Source: Mycolicibacterium nivoides
GTDB taxonomy: Bacteria > Actinomycetota > Actinomycetes > Mycobacteriales > Mycobacteriaceae
DNA length: 64,000 nucleotides
NCBI RefSeq assembly: GCF_003855255.1
Contig: NZ_CP034072.1
Coordinates: 1,665,723-1,729,722, forward strand
Direction: 5' to 3'
The notes beneath the pieces were generated by a model. The model was given only the letters and a program-made list of their open reading frames with translations. It was not told the origin of the DNA and searched no databases. The stretch's first letter is position 1; each line of letters starts with the position of its first letter. The position numbers and the translations under genes were made by a program. Below are positions 6,106 through 61,873 of this stretch, one piece after another.

Positions 6106-7560
6106 TCAGGCAGGGACTTCGCTGCGGTCACCGCTCCAGAGGGTGTGGAACTTCTGGCCGGGCTCCGCGTCGGTGCGCCCGTAGGTGTGCGCGCCGAAGA
6201 AGTCGCGCAGGCCCTGGGTCAGCGCCGCGGGCAGCCGCTCGGTGCGCAACGCGTCGTAATAGGACAGTGCCGACGCGAAACCGGGGACCGGAATCCCCAA
6301 CTCGGTCGCCTTGATCACGACCCGGCGCCAACTGTCGATGCCCGCCTCGACCGCGTCGCGGAAGTACGGAGCGGCGATCAGGGTGGCCAGATCGGCATCG
6401 TCGTCGTACGCCTCCTTGATCCGGTTGAGGAACTTCGCCCGGATGATGCAGCCGCCGCGCCAGATGGTGGCCATATCGCCCAGGGTGATGCCCCACCCGT
6501 ACTCGGCCGAGCCCGCCTGGATCTGGTTGAAGCCCTGGGCGTAGGCGATGATCTTCGAGGCGTACAGCGCCTTGCTGACATCGTCGATGAACTGTGCCGA
6601 TTCAGAAGGCTTGTCGCCGAGCTCGCCTGACGCCAGTCCGGTCGTCGCCTTGCGCTGGGGCACGGAACCCGACAGCGCCCGGGCGAACACGGCCTCGGCG
6701 ATGCCGGTGACGGGAACCCCGAGGTCCAGGGCGGACTTCACGGTCCAGCGCCCGGTGCCCTTCTGCTCGGCCTCGTCGACGATCACGTCCACCAGCGGCT
6801 TGCCGGTCTTGGCGTCCACCTGACGCAGCACCTCGGCGGTGATCTCCACCAGATAGCTGTCCAGGTCGCCCTTGTTCCACTCGGTGAACACGTCGGCGAT
6901 CTGTGCGGCCTCCAGGCCGAGCCCGTCGCGCAGCAACTGGTACGCCTCGCCGATCAGCTGCATGTCGGAATACTCGATGCCGTTGTGCACCATCTTCACG
7001 AAGTGCCCGGCACCGTCCGGGCCGATGTGGGTGCAGCACGGCACACCGTCCACGTGCGCGGAGATCTCCTCCAGCAGCGGGCCGAGGGACTTGTAGGACT
7101 CGGCGGGGCCGCCGGGCATGATCGACGGGCCGTTGAGCGCGCCTTCCTCGCCGCCGGAGATCCCCGCTCCGACGAAGTGCAGGCCGCGCTCGCGGATCGC
7201 CTTTTCCCGACGGATGGTGTCGGTGTAGAGGGCATTGCCGCCGTCGATGATGATGTCGCCGGGCTCCATGGCGTCGGCCAGCTCGTTGATCACCGCATCG
7301 GTGGGGTCGCCGGCCTTGACCATGATGATCACCCGGCGTGGCTTCTCCAGGGCGTCAAGGAATTCCGCGATCGTCTCGCTGCGCACGAACTTGCCCTCGG
7401 AGCCATGCTCGGCCAGCAGCGCATCGGTTTTGGCGATCGACCGGTTGTGCAGAGCGACGGTGTAGCCGTGGTGGGCGAAGTTGCGGGCGAGATTGGAGCC
7501 CATCACGGCCAGGCCGGTGACTCCGATCTGCGCCGTGCCGGAAGTGCTGGTCTTGGTCAT
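6106..7560 (-). CDS. gnd1: 6-phosphogluconate dehydrogenase, decarboxylating (NADP-type)
   Basis: The 484-aa enzyme oxidises 6-phosphogluconate to ribulose 5-phosphate and CO2 in the pentose phosphate pathway. The N-terminal Rossmann motif is GVTGLAVMGSNLARNFAHHG. The substrate-binding signature VGAGISGGEEGALNGPSIMPGG lies near residue 130, and the catalytic FVKMVHNGIEYSDMQL segment near 185. The all-helical C-terminal domain ends KFHTLWSGDRSE, as in the long dimeric form. It is located immediately upstream of guaB1 on the same strand, linking NADPH/pentose supply with purine interconversion. Confidence 0.96.
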   Translation of the reverse strand: MTKTSTSGTAQIGVTGLAVMGSNLARNFAHHGYTVALHNRSIAKTDALLAEHGSEGKFVRSETIAEFLDALEKPRRVIIMVKAGDPTDAVINELADAMEPGDIIIDGGNALYTDTIRREKAIRERGLHFVGAGISGGEEGALNGPSIMPGGPAESYKSLGPLLEEISAHVDGVPCCTHIGPDGAGHFVKMVHNGIEYSDMQLIGEAYQLLRDGLGLEAAQIADVFTEWNKGDLDSYLVEITAEVLRQVDAKTGKPLVDVIVDEAEQKGTGRWTVKSALDLGVPVTGIAEAVFARALSGSVPQRKATTGLASGELGDKPSESAQFIDDVSKALYASKIIAYAQGFNQIQAGSAEYGWGITLGDMATIWRGGCIIRAKFLNRIKEAYDDDADLATLIAAPYFRDAVEAGIDSWRRVVIKATELGIPVPGFASALSYYDALRTERLPAALTQGLRDFFGAHTYGRTDAEPGQKFHTLWSGDRSEVPA

Positions 7561-7611
7561 GCCGCAGCCTTTCGTTGTTTTGTTGTAGCAGAACGCCTGT
7601 CGTGCAGAGCT

Positions 7612-8583
7612 TTATCCGAGTCCGGCGAACAGGCGGTGAAGCTCGGTGAGCCAGGGGACGGCAACGGCGACGGTGGGGACCACCAGGACCGCGGCCGCGG
7701 TGAGATAGGCGGTGACCGCCATGGCCACACTGTTGGGCTTGCCGCCGAGGCGTCGTACCCGGATCACGGTGGTGGGCCCGCCGGCGGCCAGCGCACCCGA
7801 GGGGGTGCGGCCGCTCGCACAGGCGACCAGCGCCCGGGCCAGGGGAGTGGGACCCGCGGTCCGTACCGCGGCGTCGTCGGCCAGCAACTCGATCAGCAGC
7901 CGGACCGCATCGAGGGCGTTGGCACTGCGGACGAACCTCGGGAAGGCGGCATGGACGGCGGTGAACATCTCCAGGACCAGATCATGGCGGGCGCGCAGGT
8001 GGGCCCGCTCATGGGTGAGGATCGCGGCGACCTCGTTGTCCGACAACGTGGTCAGCGTTCCCTCGCTGACCACGACGCGGCTGCGGACGCCGGGCAGACA
8101 GTAGGCGAGAGGCTGCGCGACATCGAGGATGCGCAGCCCGTCGCCGGCGAGCGGGCGGTGCGCCGTACAGAGGTGGGCCGGGACCGCGTCGCGCGACTTG
8201 CTGAGCAGGTCGACCATCATGCGGTGGTGGGCGCGCCGGCGCCGGGTGCCCACCGCCACCTGGACCACGGCCACGCAGAGCCGCCCGCCGATGAACAGGG
8301 TCAGGCTGAAAACCACGACGTAGAGCAGCCACAACGGCCAACCGAGAGCGTTGATCTCACTGGTGATGGTTGCGGTCGGCCGGCCGTCCGGACCGGGAAC
8401 GAACAGGCGGCTGGCGATCGCGATACCGGCCGAGAAGGCCGAGAGTACGGCGGCCAGCGCGATGGACTGCCACAGCACGATCGCCGCTCGCGGGGCGCGC
8501 AACGGCCACGCCGCACGGGCCAGCACTGCCGGCACTGGTCCCACCAGGGCCAGCGCGACGAGAGTGAAGGCCAGCGCGGACAC
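7612..8583 (-). CDS. M56 family (BlaR1-type) membrane metallopeptidase (Rv1845c-like)
   Basis: The 323-aa protein has membrane segments near residues 1-25, 33-60, 80-112 and 280-305. A cytoplasmic gluzincin motif HERAH lies at residues 191-195, followed by the glutamate-containing region of the M56 family. There is no C-terminal penicillin-binding sensor domain, so it is a shortened BlaR1. It lies 14 bp downstream of a BlaI-type repressor gene. In this family the peptidase inactivates BlaI when cell-wall stress or a beta-lactam is sensed; how a sensorless form is triggered is unclear. Confidence 0.88.
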   Translation of the reverse strand: MSALAFTLVALALVGPVPAVLARAAWPLRAPRAAIVLWQSIALAAVLSAFSAGIAIASRLFVPGPDGRPTATITSEINALGWPLWLLYVVVFSLTLFIGGRLCVAVVQVAVGTRRRRAHHRMMVDLLSKSRDAVPAHLCTAHRPLAGDGLRILDVAQPLAYCLPGVRSRVVVSEGTLTTLSDNEVAAILTHERAHLRARHDLVLEMFTAVHAAFPRFVRSANALDAVRLLIELLADDAAVRTAGPTPLARALVACASGRTPSGALAAGGPTTVIRVRRLGGKPNSVAMAVTAYLTAAAVLVVPTVAVAVPWLTELHRLFAGLG

Positions 8584-8597
8584 GCCGTAAGTCTCTC

Positions 8598-9014
8598 TCA
8601 GGCAGTGCCCGAATTACCAGCCGGTGGGGGCAGCTGGTGCTTGCTCTCCAATTCGGCGAGCGCCCGGCGCAGTGCCCGGGCCTCGTCCACACCGACTCGC
8701 TCGACGAAATGGACCAGCGCGGCCTGGCGGCTGCCGGAGTCCGCGGCCTGGTCGAGGGCATCGACCATCAGGCCGGCGACCAGCTCGTCGCGGCCGTTTG
8801 TGGGCGCATAGCGGTGCGCCCGGTCGTCGCGGTGCTGTACGACCAGGTTCTTCTTCGCCAGCCGTTGCAGCACGGTCATGATCGTGGTGTAGGCCAAGTC
8901 GCGGCGGGCGGCCAGCGCCTCATGGACTTGGCGCACAGTTTGGGGTTCGGGCGCGGACCACAAGTGGTCCATCACCTCGCGCTCAAGCTCCCCGAGACGC
9001 GTCATTTTGGCCAT
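8598..9014 (-). CDS. blaI: BlaI/MecI family repressor
   Basis: The 138-aa protein has a winged-helix N-terminal domain. LGELEREVMDHLW and TIMTVLQRLAKKNLVVQHRDDRAHRY are the hallmark helix and wing of BlaI/MecI proteins. A C-terminal dimerisation helix region follows. It precedes the M56 peptidase by 14 bp in an apparent operon, as Rv1846c and Rv1845c do in M. tuberculosis, where BlaI represses beta-lactamase and other genes. TACTAC repeats 35-50 bp upstream may be its autoregulatory operator. Confidence 0.93.
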   Translation of the reverse strand: MAKMTRLGELEREVMDHLWSAPEPQTVRQVHEALAARRDLAYTTIMTVLQRLAKKNLVVQHRDDRAHRYAPTNGRDELVAGLMVDALDQAADSGSRQAALVHFVERVGVDEARALRRALAELESKHQLPPPAGNSGTA

Positions 9015-9035
9015 GTTCCGTTCACTCTCCTGAGC

Positions 9036-9065
9036 AGTAAAGCCAGCGTACTACGGGTTTACTAC
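9036..9065 (-). promoter_or_regulatory. candidate BlaI operator (TACTAC direct repeats, AGTAAA/TTTACT inverted repeat)
   Basis: TACTAC occurs at 9049-9054 and 9060-9065 with an 11-bp period, and AGTAAA (9036-9041) faces TTTACT (9058-9063). These AT-rich repeats lie 22-51 bp upstream of the blaI ATG, where an autoregulatory operator would be expected. The match to known BlaI sites was judged only by general character. Confidence 0.4.
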
Positions 9066-9193
9066 CGCGCGTCGTATGCGTTTGGCGACGGCGCTGCAAC
9101 TGCCCTCCGTAGCGGTTTAGGGCAAGGTCAGCGCCATATATGGGGTCCGTTGTGAATCGAGTCACAGGGGGTAGCTCTCATCCTTCACGTGAC

Positions 9194-9212
9194 TATAGTA
9201 AGGCTAACCTAA
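9194..9212 (+). promoter_or_regulatory. IdeR box upstream of the 256-aa iron-regulated gene
   Basis: TATAGTAAGGCTAACCTAA matches the mycobacterial iron box TWAGGTWAGSCTWACCTWA at 17 of 19 positions. It lies 27 bp upstream of the downstream ATG, overlapping the expected promoter, so iron-bound IdeR should repress the gene. Confidence 0.85.
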
Positions 9213-9238
9213 GTCAAACTGGAGTCTTCGGAGGTGAC

Positions 9239-10009
9239 ATGACGGTCTTGATCGAAGATCCGCTGATCGCGGGTATGGCTATCGAGCGGACGCTGCCGCT
9301 GCACGAGTCGAGTCGGCGTTTACGTGAGCTGTATCCGGAGTGTCCGCGGGTCTACGGCGTGGCCGTGGTGGGCGACCTGTCGCGTCGGCGGTGGTGGCCG
9401 CTGGCCGAGGCGTTGTCCGCGGATCGACTGCAGGGCATGTTCGACGCGGCGATGGCCGAGACGGGCAATCGGGCCGCGGTCGCCCAGCAGTTGGCCGCCA
9501 CATTCACGCACGTGGTGATCGGCCGGGTGGTACCGCTGCTGGTGCTTGAAGGGCGGGCCTGGGACACCGGCCTGGAGAACCTGTGGGTCCACGTCGACTC
9601 CGAGGGTGCGATCGACTGGGTCGGCGTGGTCGATCCGACGCTGCGCGGCCTGCCCGAGGATCCCTATTACTGTGGCCGGGCCGCCAGGTTCGCCAGTGCG
9701 TGCCACGACGGGATCGTCGCGCTGCCCAGTGAGGCTGCGCTGACCACCTGGGTGGCTCATCGCAGTCATCGCGCGCTTGAGCCGCTGTTCGCCCGGTTGG
9801 TGGAGATCAGCGACGGCGCCATGTCGGTGGCGGCCATGTGGCACATGGTGGGGGCGGCGGTGGTCGGCGCGGCCACCCAGGTCCCGCTGTTGGCCGGCTC
9901 CAGTGAGGTGGTCAGCATGCGGCGCGGCCAGGCGGTGCTGGACGCCCTGGTGGGCTTCGGCCTGCCGGTCCGCGGTTCGGGTCGCGCAGGGAAGGTCTTG
10001 CTAAATTAG
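9239..10009 (+). CDS. IdeR-regulated protein, IucA/IucC C-terminal / FhuF-like
   Basis: The 256-aa soluble protein starts at an ATG directly behind a strong GGAGGTGAC ribosome-binding site. The pattern HESSRRLRELYPECPRVYG near the N-terminus, a central GRVVPLLVLEGRAWDTGLENLWVH segment and a helical C-terminus resemble proteins annotated in mycobacteria as IucA/IucC C-terminal-domain or ferric-reductase (FhuF)-like. The paired cysteines that bind the FhuF [2Fe-2S] cluster are not evident: the cysteines are scattered. The 17/19 IdeR box upstream makes iron-starvation induction the firmest statement. A role in siderophore reduction or utilisation is inference. The gene sits between blaI and the mrsI-like sRNA. 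Confidence 0.75.
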   Translation: MTVLIEDPLIAGMAIERTLPLHESSRRLRELYPECPRVYGVAVVGDLSRRRWWPLAEALSADRLQGMFDAAMAETGNRAAVAQQLAATFTHVVIGRVVPLLVLEGRAWDTGLENLWVHVDSEGAIDWVGVVDPTLRGLPEDPYYCGRAARFASACHDGIVALPSEAALTTWVAHRSHRALEPLFARLVEISDGAMSVAAMWHMVGAAVVGAATQVPLLAGSSEVVSMRRGQAVLDALVGFGLPVRGSGRAGKVLLN

Positions 10010-10024
10010 GATAGCCTTGCCTAG
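10006..10024 (+). promoter_or_regulatory. IdeR box at the 3' end of the preceding gene, promoter of mrsI
   Basis: TTAGGATAGCCTTGCCTAG matches TWAGGTWAGSCTWACCTWA at 16 of 19 positions. It overlaps the stop codon of the 256-aa gene. Candidate -10 hexamers TAGTAT (10022-10027) and TAGATA (10029-10034) follow at once, placing the operator on a promoter that reads into a short untranslated transcript. Confidence 0.8.
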
Positions 10025-10035
10025 TATGTAGATAC

Positions 10036-10135
10036 GAGACCAACGGACCGCGCCGGAGTCCTGAGGGCTGCAGAGACCCCCGGTCCGCTCGAGGGCGGGT
10101 CCCGCGTTTTATACGCGGGACCCGCCCGCATCTTT
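10036..10135 (+). ncRNA. mrsI: MrsI-like iron-regulated small RNA
   Basis: A transcript of about 100 nt is predicted from the IdeR-controlled promoter to a perfect rho-independent-type hairpin. A first stem is closed by GGACCG (10045-10050) with CGGTCC (10081-10086) and carries a large apical region. The second hairpin is the terminator. M. tuberculosis encodes MrsI (ncRv11846), an IdeR-repressed sRNA that spares iron by blocking mRNAs of iron-containing proteins, in the gap next to Rv1846c and before Rv1847. This element has the same neighbours, size and control. The exact 5' end is estimated. Confidence 0.75.
10093..10127 (+). terminator. strong intrinsic terminator of the sRNA
   Basis: GGGCGGGTCCCGCG (10093-10106) pairs perfectly with CGCGGGACCCGCCC (10114-10127) across a 7-nt loop, followed by a short T-containing tail. 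It ends the IdeR-controlled transcript just before the next coding region. Confidence 0.9.
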
Positions 10136-10567
10136 ATGGCGACACGGCGTGTAGACACGAGAACTGTGACCACTGATTCCATCGATCGTCTGGGCCAAGG
10201 GTTCGATTCCGAACTGGGCCTGACCTATCTCGAGCTCACTCCCGACGGCGGCCGCGCACAGCTGACAATCCACGACAAGCTGCTGCAGCCCTGGGGCATA
10301 GTGCACGGCGGCGTGTACTGCTCGATCGTCGAGAGCCTGGCCAGTGTGTCGGGCCACGTGTGGCTGTCGGAGAACGGCGGCGGCACCGTGGTCGGGGTCA
10401 ACAACAACACCGATTTCCTGCGCGCCATCCGATCCGGCACCATCACAGCGGTTTCCACGCCGATCCACCGAGGGCGGCGGCAGCAGCTGTGGCTGATCAC
10501 CATCACCGACGAGAACGACAAGCTCGTGGCCCGCGGTCAGGTGCGACTGCAGAACATCGCCGAGTAG
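10136..10567 (+). CDS. PaaI/hotdog-fold thioesterase (Rv1847-like)
   Basis: The 143-aa protein has the hotdog-fold signature of PaaI-type acyl-CoA thioesterases: WGIVHGGVYCSIVESLAS, then VGVNNNTDFLRAIRSGTI, then GRRQQLWLITITDENDKLVARGQVRLQN. The ATG at 10136 abuts the upstream terminator, so the in-frame GTG at 10166 (MTTDSID...) is an alternative, possibly leaderless, start. It precedes ureA by 60 bp, as Rv1847 does, but whether it shares the urease transcript is unknown. The substrate is unknown. Confidence 0.85.
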   Translation: MATRRVDTRTVTTDSIDRLGQGFDSELGLTYLELTPDGGRAQLTIHDKLLQPWGIVHGGVYCSIVESLASVSGHVWLSENGGGTVVGVNNNTDFLRAIRSGTITAVSTPIHRGRRQQLWLITITDENDKLVARGQVRLQNIAE

Positions 10568-10627
10568 CGCTTCCGGCGCGACGGCGAGCGCTGCCGATCC
10601 CCGCTCGTCATGGCAGGATCGCGCACT

Positions 10628-10930
10628 ATGCGTTTGACCCCGCATGAGCAGGATCGTCTGCTCATCTCCTATGCCGCAGACCTGGCGCGGCGCAGACAAG
10701 CCCGCGGCTTGCTGCTCAACCATCCCGAGGCCGTCGCGGTGATCACCGATCACCTGCTGGAAGGCGCCCGCGACGGTCGGACGGTCGCGGAGTTGATGGT
10801 GAGCGGACGCGATGTGCTGACCCGCGAGCAGGTCATGGAGGGAGTGCCCGAGATGCTGCACGACGTCCAGGTCGAGGCTACTTTCCCGGACGGCACCAAG
10901 CTGGTCACCGTCCACAACCCGATCTCGTGA
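10628..10930 (+). CDS. ureA: urease subunit gamma
   Basis: The 100-aa protein matches the urease gamma family over its full length, from [20 protein letters not shown] to the C-terminal VTVHNPI. It is the smallest structural subunit of the nickel enzyme that hydrolyses urea to ammonia and CO2. The stop overlaps the ureB GTG by four bases (GTGA), giving translational coupling. It is the first gene of ureA-ureB-ureC-ureF-ureG-ureD. Confidence 0.98.
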
Positions 10931-11253
10931 GGCGCGCTGTGATCCCGGGTGAGATCGTGTTCGGCGAGGGTGACATCGCGCTCAATTCCGGTGCGCCACG
11001 GCTGATTCTCGACGTCGTCAACACCGGCGACCGGCCGGTGCAGGTCGGCAGTCATGTACACCTGCCACAGGCCAACGCCGCGTTGGACTTCGACCGCGCG
11101 GCCGCTCGAGGCCATCGCCTCGACATCCCGGCCGGTACCGCGGTTCGCTTCGAACCCGGTGTGGCCCAGCGCGTTTCACTGGTTCCGCTCGGCGGCGCCC
11201 GTGAGGTCCACGGAATCAGTCTCGACCCGCCCGGCCGATTGGGAACCGCATGA
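10927..11253 (+). CDS. ureB: urease subunit beta
   Basis: The 108-aa beta subunit opens with [15 protein letters not shown] and contains [18 protein letters not shown] and [14 protein letters not shown], all conserved in the family. Start is GTG in a GTGA overlap with ureA, and its own stop overlaps the ureC ATG (ATGA). It forms the outer beta-barrel part of the urease alpha-beta-gamma trimer. Confidence 0.98.
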
Positions 11254-12971
11254 CCGAGTTGACCCGGGCCCGCTACGCGGCGCTGTTCGGCCCCACCACC
11301 GGTGACCGGATCCGGCTGGCCGACACCGACCTGTTCATCGAGATCACCGAGGACCGCAGTGGCGGTCCGGGCCTGGCCGGTGACGAGGCGGTGTTCGGCG
11401 GTGGCAAGGTACTGCGCGAGTCGATGGGCCAATCGAGGGCGACCCGCGCCGACGGTGCGCCCGATACCGTCATCACGGGCGCGGTGATCATCGATCACTG
11501 GGGAATCATCAAGGCCGACATCGGGATCCGCGACGGCCGCATCGCCGCCATCGGCAAGGCCGGTAATCCCGACATCATGACCGGCGTGCACCCGGACCTG
11601 GTCGTCGGTCCGTCCACCGAGATCATCGCGGGCAACGGTCGCATCCTGACCGCCGGCGCGATCGACTGCCACGTGCACCTGATCTGTCCGCAGATCATGG
11701 AAGAGGCCCTGGGCGGCGGAATCACGACGATCGTGGCCGGCGGTACCGGTCCGGCCGAGGGCAGTAAGGCCACCACGGTAACCCCGGGCGCCTGGCACCT
11801 GGCCAGGATGCTGGAGTCGCTCGATTCCTGGCCGCTCAACGTCGCCCTGCTGGGCAAGGGCAATACCGTCAGCGCCGAGGCGATGTGGGAGCAGTTGCGC
11901 GGTGGCGCAGCGGGATTCAAGCTTCACGAGGACTGGGGCACCACGCCCGCGGCCATCGATGCCTGCCTGACGGTCGCCGAAGCCGCAGGGGTACAGGCCA
12001 ACATCCACACCGACACCCTCAACGAGGCCGGTTTCGTCGAAGACACGCTGGCCGCGATCAAGGGCCGCGGCATCCACGCGTATCACACCGAGGGCGCCGG
12101 TGGCGGGCACGCACCTGACATCATCACCGTCGCCTCGCACCCGAATGTGCTGCCCAGCTCCACCAATCCGACCCGGCCGCACACCGTCAACACCCTCGAC
12201 GAGCACCTCGACATGCTCATGGTGTGCCATCACCTGAATCCGAGCGTGCCCGAGGATCTGGCATTCGCCGAGAGCCGGATCCGGCCGTCGACGATCGCCG
12301 CCGAGGATCTGCTGCACGACATCGGGGCCATCTCGATGATCGGCAGCGACGCCCAGGCGATGGGCCGAATCGGCGAGGTGGTCCTACGGACCTGGCAGAC
12401 CGCGCACGTGATGAAGCGCAGGCGTGGCGCCCTGGAAGGGGATGGTCAGGCCGACAACAACCGCGTCCGCCGGTACGTCGCGAAGTACACCATCTGCCCG
12501 GCCATCGCGCACGGGCTCGACGAGGAGATCGGGTCGGTCGAGGTCGGCAAGCTCGCCGACCTGGTGCTGTGGGAACCCGCATTCTTCGGCGTCCGGCCGC
12601 ACGCGGTGATCAAGGGCGGCATGATCACATGGGCGGCCATGGGCGATGCCAATGCCTCGATCCCCACCCCGCAGCCGGTGCTGCCGCGGCCGATGTTCGG
12701 TGCCGCCCCGGCCTCCGCGGCCGCCACCTCTGTGCACTTCGTCGCACCGCAGGCGATCGAGGACGGTCTGGCGGACCGTCTCGACATTCGTCGAAAGTTG
12801 GCTGCGGTCAAGAATGTCCGGCAAGTCGGCAAGGCCCAGATGCCGCTCAACGATGCGTTGCCCCGCATCGAGGTCGAACCCGACACGTTCACCGTGCGGA
12901 TCGACGGGCAGGTGTGGCAGGAACAGCCCGCCGTCGAACTGCCCATGGCTCAACGATATTTCCTGTTCTAG
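11250..12971 (+). CDS. ureC: urease subunit alpha (catalytic)
   Basis: The 573-aa catalytic subunit carries the binuclear nickel site: His141 and His143 in AIDCHVHL, the carbamylated Lys224 in GFKLHEDWG, His253 and His279, and an Asp in [13 protein letters not shown]. The mobile flap [22 protein letters not shown] is intact. Length is normal for UreC. It is coupled to ureB by a 4-nt overlap and followed at zero spacing by ureF. Cytoplasmic. Confidence 0.99.
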
Positions 12972-27534: not shown

Positions 27535-28977
27535 ATGGATCGCGTTCCCGCCCCGGGCGAGCCCGCCCAGCTGTTCGTCGACGGCGCGTTCCGTACTGCC
27601 GAGCGGGCCGAGCCGGTGATCGAGGCCGGCACCGGCGAACCCCTCGGATCAGGCTGTGCAGCAAATGAATCCGAGGTCGACGGGGCGGTCGCTGCGGCCC
27701 GCGCGGCATTACCCGGCTGGCGGGAGGTTCCGCTGGCCGAGCGTGCCGCGGTACTGATCCGGTTCGCCGACGCGCTGCAGTCCCGGGCGAACGGCACCAG
27801 GGAACTGTGCAGCCGGGAGAACGGGATGCCGCTCGCCTTGTCGCGCGGGGCCAACGGCGCGTTTCCCGCGGCGCTGCTGCGCTACTACGCCGCGCTGATC
27901 GTGGAGACCGGCGTCGAGGAGACCCGGCCGAGCATGATCGGCCACACCATCGTGCGGCGTGAACCGGTCGGCGTGGTCGCGGCGGTCATCCCGTGGAACT
28001 ACCCGCAGGCGCTGGCGGCGATGAAGTTCGCGCCGGCCCTGGCCGCGGGCTGCACCGTGGTACTCAAGGCGGCACCGGAAACGGCCCTGGACGCACTGGT
28101 TTTCGGGGACGCGGCGACGGAGGCGGGACTGCCGCCGGGGGTGCTGAACGTGCTGGCCGGCGGACCCGACGCCGGGGCGCATCTGGTGTCGCATCCCGGG
28201 ATCGACAAAGTGGCCTTCACCGGGTCGACGGCGGCCGGGCGCAAGATCGCCGAGGTGTGCGGGCGGCTGATGCGTCCGGTCACCCTGGAACTCGGCGGGA
28301 AGTCGGCGGCGATCGTGCTCGACGATGCCGACCTGGACGCGACGATCCGTGGGCTGCGCAACGCGTCGTTCGTCAACAACGGGCAAACCTGCCACCTCAA
28401 TTCGCGTGTGCTGGCCCCGCGCTCGCGCTACGACGAGGTGGTCGACGCGGTCGCCGCGCTGGCCGACGGCTTGCGGGTGGGTGACCCACTGGACCCGGCG
28501 ACCGAGGTCGGGCCGCTGGTCAGCGCCCGGCAGCGGCAACGGGTGATGGGCTACATCGAGGTGGGCCTCGGCGAGGGCGCCAAACTGGTCGCGGGCGGAT
28601 CGGTTCCCGCCGACCAACCGCGTGGCTGGTTCGTCTCGCCGACCGTGTTCTCCGAGGTGGACAACTCGGCGCGGATCGCGCAGGAGGAGATCTTCGGGCC
28701 CGTGCTGACGGTCATCCCGTACGACGGCGACGACGATGCGGTGGCCATCGCCAACGACAGCGAGTTCGGTCTCGGCGGCAGCGTGTGGTCCACGGACGTG
28801 GAGCGGGCGACGAACATCGCCAGGGCGGTACACACCGGCACCATCGGGATCAACGACTACCAGCTGGACATGGGCGCGCCGTTCGGCGGCGTGAAATCCA
28901 GTGGCATGGGGCGCGAATTGGGGCCCGAGGGTTTGGCCGCCTACCAGATCCTCAAGTCCATCTACCGCGTCGGCTAG
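27535..28977 (+). CDS. NAD(P)-dependent aldehyde dehydrogenase
   Basis: The 480-aa protein has the complete ALDH fold. These include [20 protein letters not shown], the cofactor segment [16 protein letters not shown], the general base Glu in [13 protein letters not shown], the nucleophile Cys in [15 protein letters not shown] and [16 protein letters not shown] 27535 has CGGAG nine bases upstream. The aldehyde is unknown. It is followed after 10 bp by the thiolase-like gene and divergent from phosphoketolase. Confidence 0.93.
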
Positions 28978-28987
28978 GTTCGTGGGC

Positions 28988-30475
28988 ATGACCCTGCCCA
29001 GGACGCTCGACCCGCGAACCCCGGTACTGGTGGGCTACGGCCAGGTCAACCAGCGGGAGGAGAAGCCGGACGTCGAGCCGGTCGATCTCATGGTGGAGGC
29101 GGCTCGGGCCGCCGCCGACCCGCGGGTTCTGGAAGCGGTCGACTCGGTACGGATCGTCAATCTGCTGTCCTGGCACTACCGCGATCCGGGTTTGCTGTTG
29201 GCCCAGCGCATCCGGGCCGACAAGGCCGCGACGCGCTACACCGGGGTGGGCGGCAACGTACCGCAGACACTGGTGAACGAAGCCTGCCTGGATCTGCAGG
29301 GTGGCAGGGCCGAGGTGGTGCTGATCGCCGGCGCCGAGACGTGGCGTACCCGCAGTCGGCTGCGGGCCCGCGGGGCCAAACCGGACTGGACGCGCCAGGA
29401 CGAATCCGTGCCGGAGGCCCCGGGTGCGCATGACGGCGTGCCGATGGCCGGTGAGGCCGAGATCCGGATCAAGCTGGACCGCCCGGCCTATGTGTACCCG
29501 ATGTTCGAGCAGGCGCTGCGGATCGCGGCCGGAGAGACCAGCGATGAACATCGCAGGCGGATCGGCGAGCTGTGGTCACGGTTCAGTGCCGTGGCGGCGG
29601 GCAATCCGCATGCCTGGAGCCGGGAAGCCGTGCCCGCCGAGCAGATCTGGCAGCCGGGGCCGGACAACCGGATGATCAGCTGGCCCTACACCAAGTTGAT
29701 GAACTCCAACAACATGGTGGACCAGGGTGCGGTGCTGATCCTGACCACCGCCGAGAAGGCGACGTATCTTCAGATTCCCACCGACCGTTGGGTTTTCCCG
29801 TATGCCGGGACGGACTCGCATGACACGTACGCGATCGGGGAGCGGGCCGAGTTCTACCGGTCGCCGGCGATCCGGATCGCCGGGCGCCGGGTCCTTGAGC
29901 TGGCCGGTGTGGGCTCTGACGAGGTCGACTTCGTCGACGTGTACTCCTGCTTCCCGTCGGCGGTCCAGGTGGCCGCGGCCGAAATCGGTCTGCCCCTGGC
30001 TGATCCGTCGCGTCCGTTGACCGTCACCGGCGGGCTGACGTTCGCGGGCGGGCCGTGGAACAACTACGTGTCCCACTCGATCGCCACCATGGCCGAGCGG
30101 CTCGCGGCCGATCCCGGGACCAAGGGCCTGATCACCGCCAACGGCGGGTATCTCACAAAGCACAGTTTCGGCGTGTACGGCACCGAGCCGCCGCCACACG
30201 AGTTCCGTTGGCAGGACGTTCAACCCGAGGTGGATGCCGAGCCGACGCGGCTGCTGCAGGTGGAATTCACGGGCACCGGCACGGTGGAATCGTGGACCAC
30301 GCCCGTCGATCGCGACGGCACCGCGGAGCGGGCGTTCCTGGCGGTGCGCACCCCGGAGGACGGTCGCACGCTGGCCCGGATCGTCGACGAGTCACAGGCC
30401 GCGGCGACCATGACCGAAGACATCGCAGGGGCGAAGGTGCAGGTTCACGCCGACGGCAGCGCGACCCTGCTCTGA
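28988..30475 (+). CDS. acetyl-CoA acetyltransferase-like (thiolase superfamily) protein (Rv1867-like)
   Basis: The 495-aa protein belongs to the mycobacterial thiolase-like family exemplified by Rv1867. An N-terminal thiolase half (RTPVLVGYGQVNQREEK, TLVNEACLDLQGGRAEVVLIAGAETWR) and a C-terminal half (VDFVDVYSCFPSAVQVAAAEIGL, GGLTFAGGPWNNYVSHSIATM, GLITANGGYLTKHSFGVY) are followed by an extra OB-like domain from about residue 415. The classical N-terminal nucleophilic cysteine context is not obvious, while Cys in VYSCFPS and His in LTKHSFGVY remain. Probably coupled to the ALDH gene; substrate unknown. Confidence 0.88.
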   Translation: MTLPRTLDPRTPVLVGYGQVNQREEKPDVEPVDLMVEAARAAADPRVLEAVDSVRIVNLLSWHYRDPGLLLAQRIRADKAATRYTGVGGNVPQTLVNEACLDLQGGRAEVVLIAGAETWRTRSRLRARGAKPDWTRQDESVPEAPGAHDGVPMAGEAEIRIKLDRPAYVYPMFEQALRIAAGETSDEHRRRIGELWSRFSAVAAGNPHAWSREAVPAEQIWQPGPDNRMISWPYTKLMNSNNMVDQGAVLILTTAEKATYLQIPTDRWVFPYAGTDSHDTYAIGERAEFYRSPAIRIAGRRVLELAGVGSDEVDFVDVYSCFPSAVQVAAAEIGLPLADPSRPLTVTGGLTFAGGPWNNYVSHSIATMAERLAADPGTKGLITANGGYLTKHSFGVYGTEPPPHEFRWQDVQPEVDAEPTRLLQVEFTGTGTVESWTTPVDRDGTAERAFLAVRTPEDGRTLARIVDESQAAATMTEDIAGAKVQVHADGSATLL

Positions 30476-30500: not shown

Positions 30501-33500
30501 TCAGCGCGCGACCGGCTCTCGCTGCGCCAGCGCGAGGACCTCGTCGGTCGTCGGCGGGCTGGGCGGATGGTTGGACAGGCACCACGGCGTCTGGATCTTG
30601 TGGAAGGCATTGCCTTCCAGCGCCACATAGAACTGGCCGGACCGCAGCTTGCTGATATCGGGTACGTGGCCGCCCTTCACCCGGGCCATCTCCCGAGCCA
30701 CGGCGATCTGCGCAGGGGAGTTCAGCAGACCGTAGAACTGCGTCGTGGCATTGCCCGGGATGTGGTTGTGCAGACCGCGTGGAGACTGCGTGGCGAACAC
30801 CAGCCCCAGCCCGTACTTTCGCGCCTGCGACGACAGCGCCAGGGTGCTGTGTGTGGAGGCAGTCGTGTGACTGGACGGCGCGAAGTTCTGCGCCTCGTCC
30901 ATCACCAGCAGCCCACCCAGCGGCCGGTCCCCGGCCGGGTTGCGCTTGATCCAGGCGAACAAGGCCATTTGCAGCTGGTTGACGAACCCTTCGCGTTGTT
31001 GATCGCTGGTCAGACCGACCATGCTGATCACCGATACCCGGGCCCGGTAGCCCGGTGACGGTGTCAACAGCACCCCGGGGTCGGCGGCAGTCCCGGAGCC
31101 ACCGAACAGCGGATCGTTGACGGTCGCGGCCCGAAGGTTCTGGGCCAGTTCGGTGGCCAGTTTGTGCGCCCCGCTTAGTGCGCTGACCTCTGGGGGCAGA
31201 TTGCCGAGCAGGTCGATGAAGCCGCCCAGGGACACCGAGGGGCTGGCACCGTAGAACCGCAGCGCCTCACGCAGCACCGCGCGGGACCGCTCGGCCTTGG
31301 CGGTGTTGCCGGCGATCAGGGCGCGGGGTTCCAGTGCGGCGACGGCGGATTCGACGGCGTCGGAGAACTCGTCGGCGTCATCGATGACGCTGGCGAAGTC
31401 GGGGAGTGGGTGGAAGGACAGCGGGCGGCCGGTCGACCGGCCCGGCGTCCACACCACGACCTCGGCGTTGTCGAAATACGCGTCGGCGCGTTCGTCGTCG
31501 GCCGGGTTCCATCCTGGCGGATTGTCGGGCCAGCGGGCGCCCAGCCGGGACAGGTCGTTGTTGGGGTCCAGGACGATCGACGACACGCCCCGCAGCGCGC
31601 ACTCCTCGACCAGGCGCCGGATCAGCACGGTCTTGCCCGATCCGGAGCCGGCGAAGATCGCGGTGTGCTTGCGCAGCGCGGCCAGGTCCACCGATACCGG
31701 GCGCCCGCCGGGGCTGTCCAGGCCCAGGGTGACGGCGGTGGGCGAATGCTCGATCACCGGCGCGGGCGGCGTTACCCGTATCGGTCCGGTCGCGAGTTCG
31801 GCCTCCACATCGATCTGGGCCGGTGGCGGCGGATCGCCCGCGATGTCCCCGAGCGCGGATCGCAGCCAGCCGATCCCGTGGGCGGGCCGCCGCCGGCGCA
31901 ACCACTCGGGCAGGTCGGGGTGATTGTCGTCGATCAGATCGCGCAGCGCCGTCATGGTGCGCACGTCGTCCTCGTTCATCGGCAACACCCGACCGCCGGC
32001 CGCCTCGAACTCGGCGATCGCCACCGCGGTTTTCGCGCCCTTCGGCCACGCGGTGTTGCGCAGCAGGAACAGCCGGCGCCGGTCAGGGTTGAAACCGGTT
32101 GCTTCCCAGGCTTTCCGAATCCTGTTCTGCACCGCGACGGCATTGCCGGACGAGATGGCGCGAAACGCCCAGTGCCGCTCGTCGTCGGTGGCGGCGTCGA
32201 GCGTCTGGCGCAGCCGCCCGTGCAGCACCACCCGTTGGCCCGGCAGCGGATCGGGGCGAAATGCCTGCCCTGCCTCGCCGAGTTCGGTGATCCACGCATC
32301 CAATGCCGCCGACAACAGGCCGGGCATCGTCGTGTCCTCGCCGTCGGGGTCGAGCGCGGCGACGGTCACCGCGCGGCGCCGGTAGTCGGCGAAGCGGCGG
32401 TCCAACTCGCCGGTGTCACCGGCGGCGGTGCCGCCCGCAGCGGGTTCGTGTGGTTCGGCCACCTCACCGGTGAGTTGGGACAGTTCTTCGATCGTGTCGC
32501 GGTCCAGGCAGCGGCGGACATGGGTGTCGGCCCGCTTGAGCAGTTGACGCGGCGTGTACTGGGTGGCCTCGTCGAACGCCGAGGGCAGGATCGGCCAACT
32601 CGGGTACGGCGCGGTGAATCCGATGGACGCGTAGCTCGCGGTGAACCGCCGTTCCAGGATGGCGCGGCCGACCTCTGGCGTCGGCAGGCCCTGCAGCAGA
32701 GCGGTGGTCCGGAACCGGTCCTGCACCGTGGCGGTGGCCCGGTCCTGGATCGCCTCCCAGGCTGCGGGAAGGCAGGCCACCACACCCACCGTGCGCCGCA
32801 TGGTTTGGCGGATCGACATGAGCCCGTGCGCGATGTGCTCCAGGTCGCGGTTATCCGGCGCAGCGCCGACGGCATCCGTGCGCTCGGTGGACTGGGCCAG
32901 CAGCGTGTCGATCTGGTCGAGGGCCAGAACCGACGGCCCGGCCAGGGCGATCAGCCGGGAGATGTCGCGTACCGATTCCTGCGGGGTGAGCACCGGCGCG
33001 GGCAGCCCCCAGGCCTCCCGTTCGCCGCTGCCGGTCAGGAACGCCTCGCCGACGTCCTGCAGCTCGAGGTCTCCGGCACCCAGCAGCACCAGGGCGCGCA
33101 GGGTGTGGTGCGCGCGCTTGACGGTGTGGCGGTGGACCTTGTGCAGCGAGTTGACGAAATCGTTGAGGATCTCGGGAGTCAGGTCGTCGTCGCCGATCAC
33201 AGCGCGACGATTGGCCCGAGAGATGTGGGCCACCGAGGACAGTTCCCACAGCAGATCTTTGAGTTGGGTTTCGCGCTCGCTGCCCGGCCGGCCGAGGCTT
33301 TCCAGGATGCCCGCGCGGGCGGACTGCCAGAAGCTGGCCGCGTCGAGAAGTTCGACGAGGAAGAAGAAACCGCCGCCGGTTTGCACTTGTTCGCGCACCT
33401 GACCGAGCAGGTGGGTCTTGCCGGATCCGGCCGGGCCGCGGACCACCACGCCCAGCGGGCTGGAGTCGGTTTCCCGTTCGGCATCGCCGAAGGCGGCCAA

Positions 33501-33629
33501 CACGTCGGCCATCGGCCGGTCGTGCAGCCCGCGCACGTGCAGCGCGCCCTGCGAGTGCCACAGGTCGTCGGCGGTGGGCGCCCAGGTCAGGCGGAGCGCG
33601 CTGAGCGCTTCGCGGTGCTGTAATTCCAT
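30501..33629 (-). CDS. large double P-loop ATPase: N-terminal AAA/ORC-like module plus C-terminal HerA/FtsK-like module
   Basis: The 1042-aa protein has an N-terminal AAA-type NTPase with Walker A GPAGSGKTH (about 65-73) and Walker B VLALDQIDTLL (about 234-244). A middle helical region with WH-like patches follows. The C-terminal HerA-like translocase domain has Walker A AGSGSGKTVLIRRL (about 660-673), VLDPNNDLSRLG, and Walker B GLLVMDEAQNFAPSS (about 250 residues later), then FATQSPRGLHNH. DNA pumping or processing is the inferred activity. The ATG overlaps the stop of the upstream winged-helix gene (TGATG), so the two are coupled. It resembles ATPases of phage-defence or DNA-processing loci, but no nuclease or methylase is adjacent. 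Confidence 0.85.
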   Translation of the reverse strand: MELQHREALSALRLTWAPTADDLWHSQGALHVRGLHDRPMADVLAAFGDAERETDSSPLGVVVRGPAGSGKTHLLGQVREQVQTGGGFFFLVELLDAASFWQSARAGILESLGRPGSERETQLKDLLWELSSVAHISRANRRAVIGDDDLTPEILNDFVNSLHKVHRHTVKRAHHTLRALVLLGAGDLELQDVGEAFLTGSGEREAWGLPAPVLTPQESVRDISRLIALAGPSVLALDQIDTLLAQSTERTDAVGAAPDNRDLEHIAHGLMSIRQTMRRTVGVVACLPAAWEAIQDRATATVQDRFRTTALLQGLPTPEVGRAILERRFTASYASIGFTAPYPSWPILPSAFDEATQYTPRQLLKRADTHVRRCLDRDTIEELSQLTGEVAEPHEPAAGGTAAGDTGELDRRFADYRRRAVTVAALDPDGEDTTMPGLLSAALDAWITELGEAGQAFRPDPLPGQRVVLHGRLRQTLDAATDDERHWAFRAISSGNAVAVQNRIRKAWEATGFNPDRRRLFLLRNTAWPKGAKTAVAIAEFEAAGGRVLPMNEDDVRTMTALRDLIDDNHPDLPEWLRRRRPAHGIGWLRSALGDIAGDPPPPAQIDVEAELATGPIRVTPPAPVIEHSPTAVTLGLDSPGGRPVSVDLAALRKHTAIFAGSGSGKTVLIRRLVEECALRGVSSIVLDPNNDLSRLGARWPDNPPGWNPADDERADAYFDNAEVVVWTPGRSTGRPLSFHPLPDFASVIDDADEFSDAVESAVAALEPRALIAGNTAKAERSRAVLREALRFYGASPSVSLGGFIDLLGNLPPEVSALSGAHKLATELAQNLRAATVNDPLFGGSGTAADPGVLLTPSPGYRARVSVISMVGLTSDQQREGFVNQLQMALFAWIKRNPAGDRPLGGLLVMDEAQNFAPSSHTTASTHSTLALSSQARKYGLGLVFATQSPRGLHNHIPGNATTQFYGLLNSPAQIAVAREMARVKGGHVPDISKLRSGQFYVALEGNAFHKIQTPWCLSNHPPSPPTTDEVLALAQREPVAR

Positions 33630-34273
33630 CAGGACTCGATCGCGATCAGGTGTTTGTCCTGGTTGCCTATCTCCACCGCGGCTTCGCGGTCTGCGGGGGT
33701 GAGCACCTTCTGGTTCTCCTCGGGGATCAGGCTGACGCCGGGTTGCTGATAGAGGCTGATCAGGGCGGCGTCGACGGTGGGGCGGGGCAGCCCGGGTACG
33801 GCCTGACGCAGCCGCAGCAGACTCACCCAGCCTCCGGGCCGGGCCGTCAGCCCGGCATAGGCGGTGCGCAGCTGGATTTCGGGACCGGCTTCGGGAGCCG
33901 GCGTGGCCGCCTGGGCGGGCGCCTCGGCGGGCAGGAACACGTCGGCGGGAACGAGGTCGGCGTGTTCGAAATAGCGGTGCAGCGCACCCAGCAGCGTGTA
34001 CAGGGCCTTGCCCTGTCCGGTGGACCGCGGTGGTGCGTCGGCGCCGAACAGGGATCGGCACAGCGCCCACCCCGTGTCGGTCAGCTCGTGGACGAGGGGC
34101 CGGGTGCCGGTGGACTCGATCAGGCCCAACCGGTTGAGACGGTCCCGCTTCGGTTTGTCGAGTTTGGGCCCGAGCCGCTCCAGCTCGGCGTTGGGCACCG
34201 GGCGTGACTCGGCCATCAGCACCAGCAGGACTGCCTGCTCGGTGCCGGACAGCTCGTCGGGTGCGACATTCAC
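33629..34273 (-). CDS. winged-helix-like protein coupled to the HerA-type ATPase
   Basis: The 214-aa protein has two probable winged-helix domains. The first, at about residues 6-75, contains LSGTEQAVLLVLMAESRPVPNAELERLG and KRDRLNRLGLIES. The second, at about 135-205, contains WVSLLRLRQAVPGLPRPTVDAALISLYQ. They are joined by an Ala/Pro-rich linker. The GTG at 34273 has AGGAAGGTGAG about eight bases upstream, and the stop overlaps the ATPase ATG by one base. The composition suggests a DNA-binding or adaptor subunit of the ATPase. I do not recognise a named family. Confidence 0.75.
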   Translation of the reverse strand: MNVAPDELSGTEQAVLLVLMAESRPVPNAELERLGPKLDKPKRDRLNRLGLIESTGTRPLVHELTDTGWALCRSLFGADAPPRSTGQGKALYTLLGALHRYFEHADLVPADVFLPAEAPAQAATPAPEAGPEIQLRTAYAGLTARPGGWVSLLRLRQAVPGLPRPTVDAALISLYQQPGVSLIPEENQKVLTPADREAAVEIGNQDKHLIAIES

Positions 34274-34422
34274 CGGATGCTCACCTTCCTGCTGTCGTGG
34301 GTGTGGCACGCGGGCGCCGATGCCGGCACGTGTCTCAAGCACGTTAGCGCGTACTCCCGACCGCGCGAGAATGTTGTTGCGCCGCACGGTTTTCGCGCAC
34401 GCGGCAGGCGCGGTGCCCCCAG

Positions 34423-35649
34423 CTACCCGGGCGGCAGTGTCTGGGCAGGGTCGGCGATACGTTCCGGATCGACGGGCTCGGCCGATCGGATCAGTGCCTT
34501 GACGTCGTCAAGGACGTCCCACACGTTGACGTTCATCCCCGCCAGAACACGGCTCTCGGCGTCGAGCCAGAATGCCACGAACTCGCGCCCAGCAACGTCG
34601 CCGCGGAAAACTACTCGCTGATATCGGGGTGCGTGGCCGACATATTCCATGCCGAGGTCGTACTGATCGGTGAAGAAATAGGGCAGTTCGTCGTATTCGG
34701 CGCTTTTGCCCAGCATCCCCGCGGCCGCCACCGCGGGCTGTTTGAGTGCGTTGGCCCAGTGCTCGGTGCGGATACGCACCCCGAAGAAAGGATGTTGTGC
34801 GGCGGCGATGTCGCCGACGGCGAATATGTCGGGATCGCTGCTGCGTAACGATGCGTCGACGAGCACCCCGCCGTCCGCGATGGCCAACCCGGCCTTTTCG
34901 GCCAGTCCGATGTTCGGCGCCGCGCCGACGGCGATCAGGACCGCGTCGGCGGTGACGGTGGAGCCGTCCCCGAGTCGCAGACCGGTGGCGGTGCCGTTGT
35001 CGGTGGTGACCTCCTTCACCGACTGATCCAGCCGCAGATCGACCCCGTGCTCGCGGTGCAGTTGCGCGAACACCTCACCCACCTCGGCGCCGAGGGCGGC
35101 CAGCAGCGGCAGGCGTGCGGACTCGACGACCGTGACGTTCACGTCGCGGCCGCGCGCGCCCGCGGCGACCTCCAGTCCGATCCATCCGGCGCCCACGACG
35201 GCCAGCGTCGAACCCGGGGTCAGCGCGGCGCTCAGGGTCGCCGCGTCGTCGATCGTGCGGAGATAGTGGACTCCGGCGGCGTCCGATCCCGGAATCGGTG
35301 GTCGGCGTGACGAGGATCCGGTGGCCAGCAGCAGTTTGTCGTAACCGACGGCGGTGCCGTCGGGCAGTGCGAGCGTGTGCTCGGCGGCGTTGACGGCGGT
35401 GACCTCGGTCCCCAGCCTCAGCTCGACGTTGTGGTCGCGGTACCAGGACGCCGGATCGACGGTGAAGTCGTCGAGCTTCTTCTTTCCGGCCAGGTATTCC
35501 TTGGACAGCGGTGGACGCTCGTAGGGGAGCTGGTCCTCGGCAGCGAACAGCACGACATGCCCGTCAAAGTCGTTGTCCCGCAGAGCTTCAGCGGCCTTGG
35601 CGCCGGCCAGGCCACCGCCGACGATCGCGAATGTGGACGACGTTGTCAT
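34423..35649 (-). CDS. FAD-dependent ferredoxin/rubredoxin reductase-type oxidoreductase (Rv1869c-like)
   Basis: The 408-aa protein has an FAD fold (FAIVGGGLAGAKAAEALR near residue 7), an NAD(P) fold (STLAVVGAGWIGLEVAAGARGR near 145), the FAD-binding DIFAVGDIAAAQHPFFG near 270, and a C-terminal reductase domain. It resembles reductases that deliver electrons from NAD(P)H to ferredoxins of cytochrome P450 or dioxygenase systems. Its partner ferredoxin is not adjacent. Synteny (after Rv1867/1868) supports Rv1869c. Confidence 0.93.
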   Translation of the reverse strand: MTTSSTFAIVGGGLAGAKAAEALRDNDFDGHVVLFAAEDQLPYERPPLSKEYLAGKKKLDDFTVDPASWYRDHNVELRLGTEVTAVNAAEHTLALPDGTAVGYDKLLLATGSSSRRPPIPGSDAAGVHYLRTIDDAATLSAALTPGSTLAVVGAGWIGLEVAAGARGRDVNVTVVESARLPLLAALGAEVGEVFAQLHREHGVDLRLDQSVKEVTTDNGTATGLRLGDGSTVTADAVLIAVGAAPNIGLAEKAGLAIADGGVLVDASLRSSDPDIFAVGDIAAAQHPFFGVRIRTEHWANALKQPAVAAAGMLGKSAEYDELPYFFTDQYDLGMEYVGHAPRYQRVVFRGDVAGREFVAFWLDAESRVLAGMNVNVWDVLDDVKALIRSAEPVDPERIADPAQTLPPG

Positions 35650-61630: not shown

Positions 61631-61667
61631 TCCGTTACCGGCCTTTCTTTCGCGGTGTGACAAGAGA

Positions 61668-61686
61668 TTAGCGCAGTCTAACCTTA
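61668..61686. promoter_or_regulatory. IdeR box between the bfd operon and bfrA
   Basis: TTAGCGCAGTCTAACCTTA matches TWAGGTWAGSCTWACCTWA at 15 of 19 positions. A weak second half-site TTAGGACAGCC follows at 61688-61698. It lies 38 bp upstream of the 211-aa gene and 187 bp upstream of bfrA. IdeR could repress the leftward operon and, as reported for mycobacterial bfrA, activate storage when iron is plentiful. Confidence 0.65.
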
Positions 61687-61810
61687 GTTAGGACAGCCAG
61701 TCCACTCCTCGTGGCCACGCCTCGGTCCGGGTGGTCCGAAGGGTCCGACAATGTCGCACGAACACGCCGAATTGGGCGTTAATCATTGCGCCTCACCACG
61801 CTTTCTGCAC

Positions 61811-61816
61811 TAGATT
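61811..61816 (+). promoter_or_regulatory. candidate -10 of bfrA
   Basis: TAGATT lies 57-62 bp upstream of the bfrA ATG, giving a short untranslated leader that ends with a TAGGAG ribosome-binding site. No -35 consensus is evident, which would suit an activated promoter. Confidence 0.45.
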
Positions 61817-61873
61817 GGAAGTGCACGACACGCGGCAACACTTGACCAGCCCTCAAGGTGCTTAGGAGTCACG

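What the first reader, a model, noticed from the sequence alone, without database searches (positions are those of the whole stretch)
30501..34273. Coupled winged-helix protein and 1042-aa AAA + HerA-like double ATPase: candidate uncharacterised DNA-acting system
Two genes overlap as TGATG. The large protein joins an ORC/AAA-like NTPase (Walker A about 65-73, Walker B about 234-244) to a HerA-type translocase (Walker A about 660-668, DEAQN Walker B). The partner has two winged-helix-like domains. Proteins of this kind drive defence or DNA-processing complexes, yet there is no nuclease, methylase or phosphatase beside them, and the flanks are ordinary syntenic genes.
Basis: partly seen in the sequence, partly recalled or inferred. 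Interest (0 to 1): 0.7.

Follow-up and report, generated by a model that had tools for sequence, protein, structure and literature searches.

The report
Mycobacterial DNA-motor gene pair lacking nuclease
Two coupled genes of a mycobacterium encode a DNA-binding protein and a double DNA-motor protein that in many related bacteria stand beside a DNA-cutting enzyme or another conflict protein; here the cutter is missing but the pair is kept intact, so it is probably a stripped-down or repurposed anti-invader system.

Summary
In detail: a 214-aa winged-helix protein (33629-34273, minus strand) overlaps by TGATG a 1042-aa AAA+/HerA protein (30501-33629) with both Walker pairs intact. The pair is in 39 of 148 sampled genus genomes, always adjacent, at several chromosomal sites. 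'No nuclease beside it' is best read as a lineage-specific loss. In Rhodococcus, Streptosporangiaceae, some mycobacteria and a Methylobacterium plasmid a DUF559 endonuclease gene lies directly upstream. That nuclease was found in 7 of the 148 genomes, each time beside the pair, and it co-inherits with the ATPase (distance correlation 0.81, 46 loci). Other branches have TIR + KGGVGR ATPase (12 loci), trypsin-STAND-WD40 + Trypco1 (8) or an AIPR protein (2). In the window's clade no trace of the nuclease was found, yet the pair is under purifying selection (median dN/dS 0.11 for the ATPase). Best reading: a new variant of the computationally proposed Orc/CDC6-HerA 'capture' defence systems, a recognition and motor core with exchangeable effectors, here without an adjacent one. 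Defence is inferred; I found no experiment on it.

The parts
30501..33629 (-). 1042-aa AAA+ - HerA double ATPase gene (ATG start)
   Evidence: AlphaFold2 mean pLDDT 85
32499..33521 (-). N-terminal AAA+ domain, residues about 37-377
   Evidence: AAA_22 61-186 E 2.6e-11; secondary structure
33414..33437 (-). Walker A of the AAA+ domain, GPAGSGKT, residues 65-72
32907..32927 (-). Walker B of the AAA+ domain, LALDQID, residues 235-241
31839..32339 (-). middle alpha/beta region, residues about 431-597; order of elements resembles an endonuclease-like fold (candidate inactive REase, judged by eye)
   Evidence: DSSP of the AlphaFold2 model; fold not searched alone, so tentative
30522..31751 (-). HerA translocase domain, residues about 627-1036
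31629..31649 (-). HerA Walker A, GSGSGKT, residues 661-667
30885..30911 (-). HerA Walker B, LLVMDEAQN, residues 907-915
33629..34273 (-). 214-aa winged-helix partner gene (GTG start), TGATG overlap with the ATPase gene
34274..34422 (-). 149-bp gap where some relatives at the same site carry the DUF559 nuclease gene; no remnant detected on the pair's strand
34423..35649 (-). flanking ferredoxin-reductase-type gene, boundary of the variable site (not part of the system)
28901..30475 (+). flanking thiolase-like (TLP1) gene, other boundary of the variable site (not part of the system)

Best explanation
The pair is the recognition-and-motor core of an anti-invader system of the Orc/CDC6-HerA 'capture' type. 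Inferred mechanism: the winged-helix protein and the AAA+ domain place the complex on a DNA feature of an incoming phage or plasmid. The HerA domain, as a ring, then pumps that DNA. In the complete form it feeds it to a DUF559 endonuclease encoded directly upstream; other branches use TIR + KGGVGR, a protease/STAND module or an AIPR protein instead. In the window's clade (M. septicum, M. peregrinum, M. wolinskyi and others) the nuclease gene was lost, but selection keeps the pair. It therefore most likely still acts on DNA, either by the motor alone (stripping or blocking) or with an effector encoded elsewhere. Shown by computation: domains and motifs, adjacency, patchy spread, nuclease co-inheritance, absence in this clade, purifying selection. 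Inferred: loss rather than gain, defence role, DNA pumping, complex formation, what replaces the nuclease.
Against: I found no phage or plasmid assay. 51 of 84 loci have neither DUF559 nuclease nor TIR upstream, 36 of them among the 44 genus loci, so in mycobacteria the core usually stands alone. The pair sits among ordinary genes, not in a defence island. No other MADS, BREX or Dnd gene was seen among the flanking genes scanned. Purifying selection is also what a housekeeping gene would show. One window-clade record, M. houstonense L194, has the pair in scrambled pieces, though intact M. houstonense proteins exist (P0009, P0012). The Orc/CDC6 assignment rests on AAA_22/AAA_16 hits, not on a tree. 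Trees are FastTree or short IQ-TREE searches with long branches meeting, and counts of changes cannot tell gain from loss.
Confidence: 0.62

Rival explanations
1. The pair has been taken over for a host function in mycobacteria (for example chromosome or plasmid DNA handling, or distributive conjugal transfer) after losing its nuclease; it is no longer a defence system.
For: Nuclease absent from several mycobacterial branches while the pair stays; purifying selection in nuclease-free clades, ATPase dN/dS 0.107 in the window clade and 0.175 in the iranicum/chubuense clade; the same place beside the reductase gene in the 16 window-clade loci used.
Against: Absent from 109 of 148 genus genomes, different neighbours in different genus members, a remnant in G123; relatives carry conflict effectors.
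Confidence: 0.2
2. The system is complete in trans: an unlinked nuclease of the genome serves the pair.
For: Three matches to the DUF559 part of the partner nuclease elsewhere in the window genome, E 4.9e-8, 1.1e-3 and 6.3e-3.
Against: They match only residues 250-325 of 337 of the query; full-length homologues (E 1e-20) were never seen apart from the pair in 148 genomes.
Confidence: 0.12
3. Housekeeping ATPase orthologous to a known chromosome-segregation or repair protein.
For: HerA fold; no defence island around it.
Against: Presence in only 39 of 148 genus genomes; HerA equivalog models far below cut-off, for example NF040819 20.7 bits against 970.
Confidence: 0.04
4. A decaying relic of a three-gene system.
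For: Nuclease missing; a remnant nuclease in M. hodleri L176, a remnant ATPase in G123, a split winged-helix gene in G144, scrambled pieces in M. houstonense L194.
Against: 16 window-clade loci carry both genes, each in one open frame, with ATPase dN/dS 0.107 and winged-helix dN/dS 0.205; ATPase motifs invariant.
Confidence: 0.02

Closest known systems
Orc/CDC6-coupled HerA/FtsK 'capture' systems (Rakesh, Aravind and Krishnan 2024, PMC10853773; computational proposal)
   Same: AAA+ ATPase with HerA/FtsK translocase, winged-helix protein and a REase-fold nuclease in one gene neighbourhood, domains fused in varied ways; links of related Orc/CDC6 proteins to TIR and STAND domains are also described there.
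   Different: Here AAA+ and HerA are one polypeptide, the nuclease is DUF559-type (word absent from the text), and the window copy has no adjacent nuclease; KGGVGR, Trypco1-protease and AIPR/AbiU partners were not seen in the two sections read.
DndFGH (DndH C-terminal HerA)
   Different: DndH model only at E 0.028; no DndF or DndG seen beside the pair; different N-terminal half.
MADS (mad8)
   Same: mad8 profile matches the HerA domain over positions 3-290 of 314, E 1.5e-21.
   Different: The profile is too short to hold the AAA+ half; no other MADS model hits the pair and no methylase or kinase was seen among the flanking genes scanned.
SIR2-HerA, DUF4297-HerA, NurA-HerA
   Different: Alignments begin at about residue 100-155 of those chains; the N-terminal half here is an AAA+ ATPase, and the usual nuclease is of another family.
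BREX-related capture (BRC) systems (PMC12839542, passages read)
   Different: No PglZ, BrxC-like or transglycosylase gene among the window's flanking genes scanned.

Membership tests
Orc/CDC6-HerA/FtsK capture system | Orc/CDC6-family AAA+ ATPase | tested here: inconclusive
   AAA_22 (44.4 bits, cut-off 27); AAA_16 31.5 bits, just under its cut-off 32.6; AAA_22 in 13 of 13 members scanned; clade not tested by a tree
Orc/CDC6-HerA/FtsK capture system | HerA/FtsK ATPase with intact Walker A and B | tested here: met
Orc/CDC6-HerA/FtsK capture system | winged-helix DNA-binding component | tested here: met
Orc/CDC6-HerA/FtsK capture system | active REase-fold nuclease in the neighbourhood | tested here: not met
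   not found in the window and no full-length homologue of the partner nuclease in its genome; found in 21 of 84 and 42 (plus one remnant) of 80 relatives
Orc/CDC6-HerA/FtsK capture system | inactive REase inserted after the AAA+ core | tested here: inconclusive
   residues 431-524 follow a helix-strand-strand-strand-helix-strand order; not folded or searched alone
MADS | full mad gene set | tested here: not met
   only mad8 matches the pair; flanking genes scanned are metabolic or without family
SIR2-HerA / DUF4297-HerA | SIR2 or DUF4297 effector beside HerA | tested here: not met
   none among the window's flanking genes scanned; not searched for in the relatives
NurA-HerA | HerA with HAS-barrel and a NurA partner | tested here: inconclusive
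   alignments start near residue 100 of HerA chains; no NurA among window genes scanned
BREX / BRC | PglZ and BrxC-type genes | tested here: not met
   no such gene among the window's flanking genes scanned
anti-phage defence in general | measured protection against phage or plasmid | not testable with these tools
   needs bench assay

The most novel reading that the evidence does not exclude
A winged-helix plus AAA+/HerA pair is a self-sufficient DNA-handling core onto which unrelated effectors (DUF559 nuclease, TIR + KGGVGR, protease-STAND, AIPR/AbiU) are plugged in different lineages. In the window's mycobacterial clade the core has become an effector-free system that blocks or evicts invading DNA by motor action alone.
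Probability: 0.25. Interest if true: 0.75.

Novelty: new variant of a known kind. Interest (0 to 1): 0.5.

Why it matters
It turns an anonymous 'HerA domain-containing protein' of environmental mycobacteria and rhodococci into a testable defence candidate with a natural experiment built in. Close relatives differ by the presence or absence of the nuclease, so one can ask whether a DNA-pumping core protects without its cutter. Effector exchange on one conserved core would also show how such systems are assembled.

Tried and rejected
Universal housekeeping gene: set aside, since the pair is in 39 of 148 genus genomes. Dropped from the 41 first matches: G010 (a 27% match over 62 residues of the HerA part) and G123 (remnant). 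Dropped from the 40: G072 (stop-filled match; its region L147 showed nothing).

In one search their matches cover only residues 564 and beyond; of the 15 fetched regions (L128-L142) none has the winged-helix gene, and their frames, as far as shown, either begin near the HerA domain or with what looks like upstream frame extension. Full-length relatives in other orders exist among the named loci.

Phages and viral contigs: no match.

Nuclease remnant in the window: none found; only the pair's strand of 34201-34520 was tested, best E 0.27.

Fold of the AAA+ and middle parts: the whole-chain fold searches were filled by HerA, so these parts were not tested; the same holds for the C-terminal half of the small protein. 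Foldseek alone gave no match at E 0.001 or better for the small protein (best 3.6e-3).

Literature: searches for MADS, HerA with DUF559, HerA with nuclease, defence and winged helix, capture systems, mycobacteria with HerA, KGGVGR/Trypco1 and DUF559 with defence in actinobacteria listed no paper that I recognised as describing this gene set; only listings were seen except for the four papers named here, and the library is open access only. PMC10853773: abstract, sections 22 and 26 and a term search. PMC12839542: passages. PMC13316683: passages, on Druantia in M. smegmatis, not this pair. PMC7159879: passages. The MADS paper and its gene roles are recalled, not read.

Rows dropped or recoded: the tree holds the window, 79 of the 80 named loci (scrambled L194 left out), L151-L153 and 42 of the unnamed loci (L055-L087 without the frame-broken L079, and ten genus loci that I picked). 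L176 was coded 'none'. L085 is coded 'none' though its contig starts inside the winged-helix gene; L117 and L125 show only 563 and 859 bp upstream. One search used 55 rows, near-duplicates removed by hand. In one search the ten 'mycobacterial' rows include L196, a MAG titled only Actinomycetota. In one search pairs with dS outside 0.05-2.0 were dropped, and the 0 in-frame stops that it prints follow from the way the stretches were cut (from stop-free frames). Some names (DedA-type, SDR-type, inactive REase) are by eye or recalled and come from no call.
Full report

Spread. The window's genome holds one copy. In 148 genus genomes the full-length ATPase is in 39, the window's own included, and the partner is adjacent in the same 39. 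In 298 genomes of the order 88 had a match, many only to generic HerA domains, with full-length ones in several families. In 296 genomes of the phylum 36 matched; outside the order the matches cover only residues 564 and beyond, and none of 15 such regions fetched has the winged-helix gene. Full-length relatives in other orders do exist: a scan of named genomes found 401 relatives, of which the best 80 were kept, among them Rhodococcus, Streptosporangiaceae and Micromonosporaceae. Three of 72,556 plasmid records hold a copy covering 94-99% of the query: Nonomuraea, Tsukamurella and, at 37% identity, Methylobacterium. Phages and viral contigs gave none. The window's nearest named relative is M. 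septicum DSM 44393 (99% over 1024 columns).

The third gene. Neighbourhoods were fetched for the 39 genus genomes, 5 further genus genomes and 40 loci outside the genus (not all matches). All 83 with an ATPase match over 2400 nt, and one with a frame-broken ATPase (L079), have the winged-helix gene directly upstream. Upstream of it lies a DUF559 nuclease in 21 of these 84 (13 of 40 outside, 8 of 44 inside the genus), TIR + KGGVGR ATPase in 12 (all outside), and neither in 51 (15 and 36). L107 (ATPase remnant), L128-L142 (HerA only) and L147 (nothing) were not counted; L085, L117 and L125 show little or no sequence upstream. Among the 80 named loci, which partly repeat the same genomes, all have the winged-helix gene; 43 score for the nuclease, 40 of them in one frame, L226 and L229 in pieces, and M. 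hodleri L176 only for its last 54 profile positions. Pfam names the nuclease DUF559 (E 2e-14 to 3e-11 in four tested), the TIR protein TIR_2 (two tested) and the ATPase a ParA/MinD-like protein (one tested); NCBIfam calls the latter KGGVGR-variant (145.8 bits, cut-off 90). The nuclease's only convincing solved relative by sequence is 3hrl, 'endonuclease-like protein' (E 1.4e-3). Conserved acidic and histidine residues of its C-terminal part are invariant in 61 of 61 copies. In the Tsukamurella record the three genes overlap by four bases each (7284-8321, 8318-8989, 8986-12252). On the Methylobacterium plasmid all three stand in a row, the nuclease diverged in its N-terminal half.

Other partners. 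A supported clade of eight loci (L056, L057, L060, L081, L082, L211, L223, L231) has a divergently transcribed Trypco1-like gene and a trypsin-STAND-WD40-like gene beside the pair in 8 of 8, and in none of the other 158 of 166 loci searched. Two divergent loci (L080, L086) have an AIPR protein downstream, of which the one scanned, L080, matches AbiU at 3.5e-76.

Loss in the window's branch. Across 148 genus genomes the full-length nuclease was found in 7 (E 1e-20 or better), each time directly beside the pair; for independent genomes the chance of 7 of 7 would be 5.8e-5, but genomes are related, so this is only a guide. Nuclease and ATPase distances correlate (r 0.814, 46 loci, 0 of 2000 permutations), and the ten mycobacterial nucleases form one clade (SH-aLRT 98), as the mycobacterial ATPases do. 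The tree of 125 ATPases needs 12 changes of the nuclease label, a 55-row tree 6. With every Rhodococcus and named Streptosporangiaceae row carrying the nuclease, repeated loss in Mycobacterium is the simplest reading; counts of changes alone cannot tell gain from loss. The window clade (17 rows) has no nuclease, and no trace was found upstream in the window. The genome has only three matches to the DUF559 part.

The site. In the window the pair lies between a thiolase-like gene and a ferredoxin-reductase-type gene. In L098, L102, L103 and L105 (genus) the nuclease lies between the reductase and the pair. Of 26 genomes without the pair searched for the reductase, ten regions were fetched: L238 has only 35 bp between the two boundary genes; L234 has another window-neighbour gene there; L235, L236, L237, L239 and L242 carry a gene of about 700 aa there; L243 shows no intact reductase; L240 and L241 show no shared neighbour. 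Elsewhere in the genus the pair has other neighbours.

Is the two-gene form alive? In 16 window-clade loci median dN/dS is 0.107 for the ATPase, 0.205 for the winged-helix gene and 0.153 for the flanking reductase. In another nuclease-free clade (7 loci) it is 0.175 and 0.253. In 10 Rhodococcus loci with the nuclease it is 0.117 and 0.242, and 0.291 for the nuclease. In 11 Streptosporangiaceae loci with the nuclease it is higher (0.398, 0.436, 0.411), where dS may be saturated (all). So the nuclease-free pair of the window clade is kept about as strongly as the Rhodococcus system. Against this, M. houstonense L194 of the same species group has the pair in scrambled pieces, though intact proteins of that species are on record (P0009, P0012).

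What is known. Rakesh, Aravind and Krishnan (PMC10853773, sections 22 and 26 read) propose HerA/FtsK capture systems in which an Orc/CDC6 ATPase with an inserted inactive REase, an active REase, a HerA/FtsK and a winged-helix protein are combined in one or several polypeptides; related Orc/CDC6 proteins also occur with STAND or TIR domains. A 2026 paper (PMC12839542, passages read) repeats this and adds BREX-related capture systems. The word DUF559 is in neither text; the first has 'Mycobacterium' only in its reference list, and the second was not searched inside for it. The system here fits that kind as a variant: AAA+ and HerA in one chain, DUF559 as a frequent nuclease, exchangeable effectors, and nuclease-free mycobacterial forms. 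The middle region 431-524 has a helix-strand-strand-strand-helix-strand order that could be the inactive REase, but it was not searched alone. The best PADLOC match is mad8 of MADS, for the HerA part only.

Verdict. Observation confirmed; interpretation partly supported. A new variant of a proposed kind of defence system, in a branch that has most likely lost its nuclease. Defence is inferred from company and design, not shown.

Noticed in passing
L152:4870-20936; also L079, L085 and L052: In the Tsukamurella record the nuclease/winged-helix/AAA-HerA genes sit inside the ribosomal-protein cluster, between rpsQ and rplN; L079, L085 and L052 share the rpsQ-side gene clusters next to the pair. 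The Tsukamurella 'plasmid 22' record thus carries a chromosomal-type cluster.
   Followed up: partly
L107:10298-10384 (G123): A short ATPase remnant lies beside a gene of the same cluster (c57, DedA-type by eye) that neighbours the pair in L099 and L106, suggesting a site where the pair decayed.
   Followed up: partly
L194:9420-13496: In the M. houstonense ATCC 49403T record pieces of the reductase, winged-helix and ATPase genes alternate out of order, either a rearrangement or an assembly fault.
   Followed up: no
L235, L236, L237, L239, L242: Five mycobacteria without the pair carry at the same site a gene of about 700 aa that begins like an SDR-type epimerase (by eye); its function was not examined.
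   Followed up: no
L076:6955-8055 and L078:6811-7689: Two divergent loci have proteins of 367 and 293 aa without Pfam hits directly upstream of the winged-helix gene, possible further partners.
   Followed up: no
L059:5579-7771: A 731-aa protein with a P-loop-like motif (by eye) and no Pfam hit lies 52 bp upstream of the winged-helix match.
   Followed up: no
L198, L203: The tree tool's origin labels place two Rhodococcus loci in Cyanobacteriota, apparently a name homonym; the sequences group with Rhodococcus.
   Followed up: no
61001-62000: Lower G+C (58%) just beside a ferritin-like gene at 61874-62353; the other window genes scanned look metabolic, regulatory or membrane-related.
   Followed up: no
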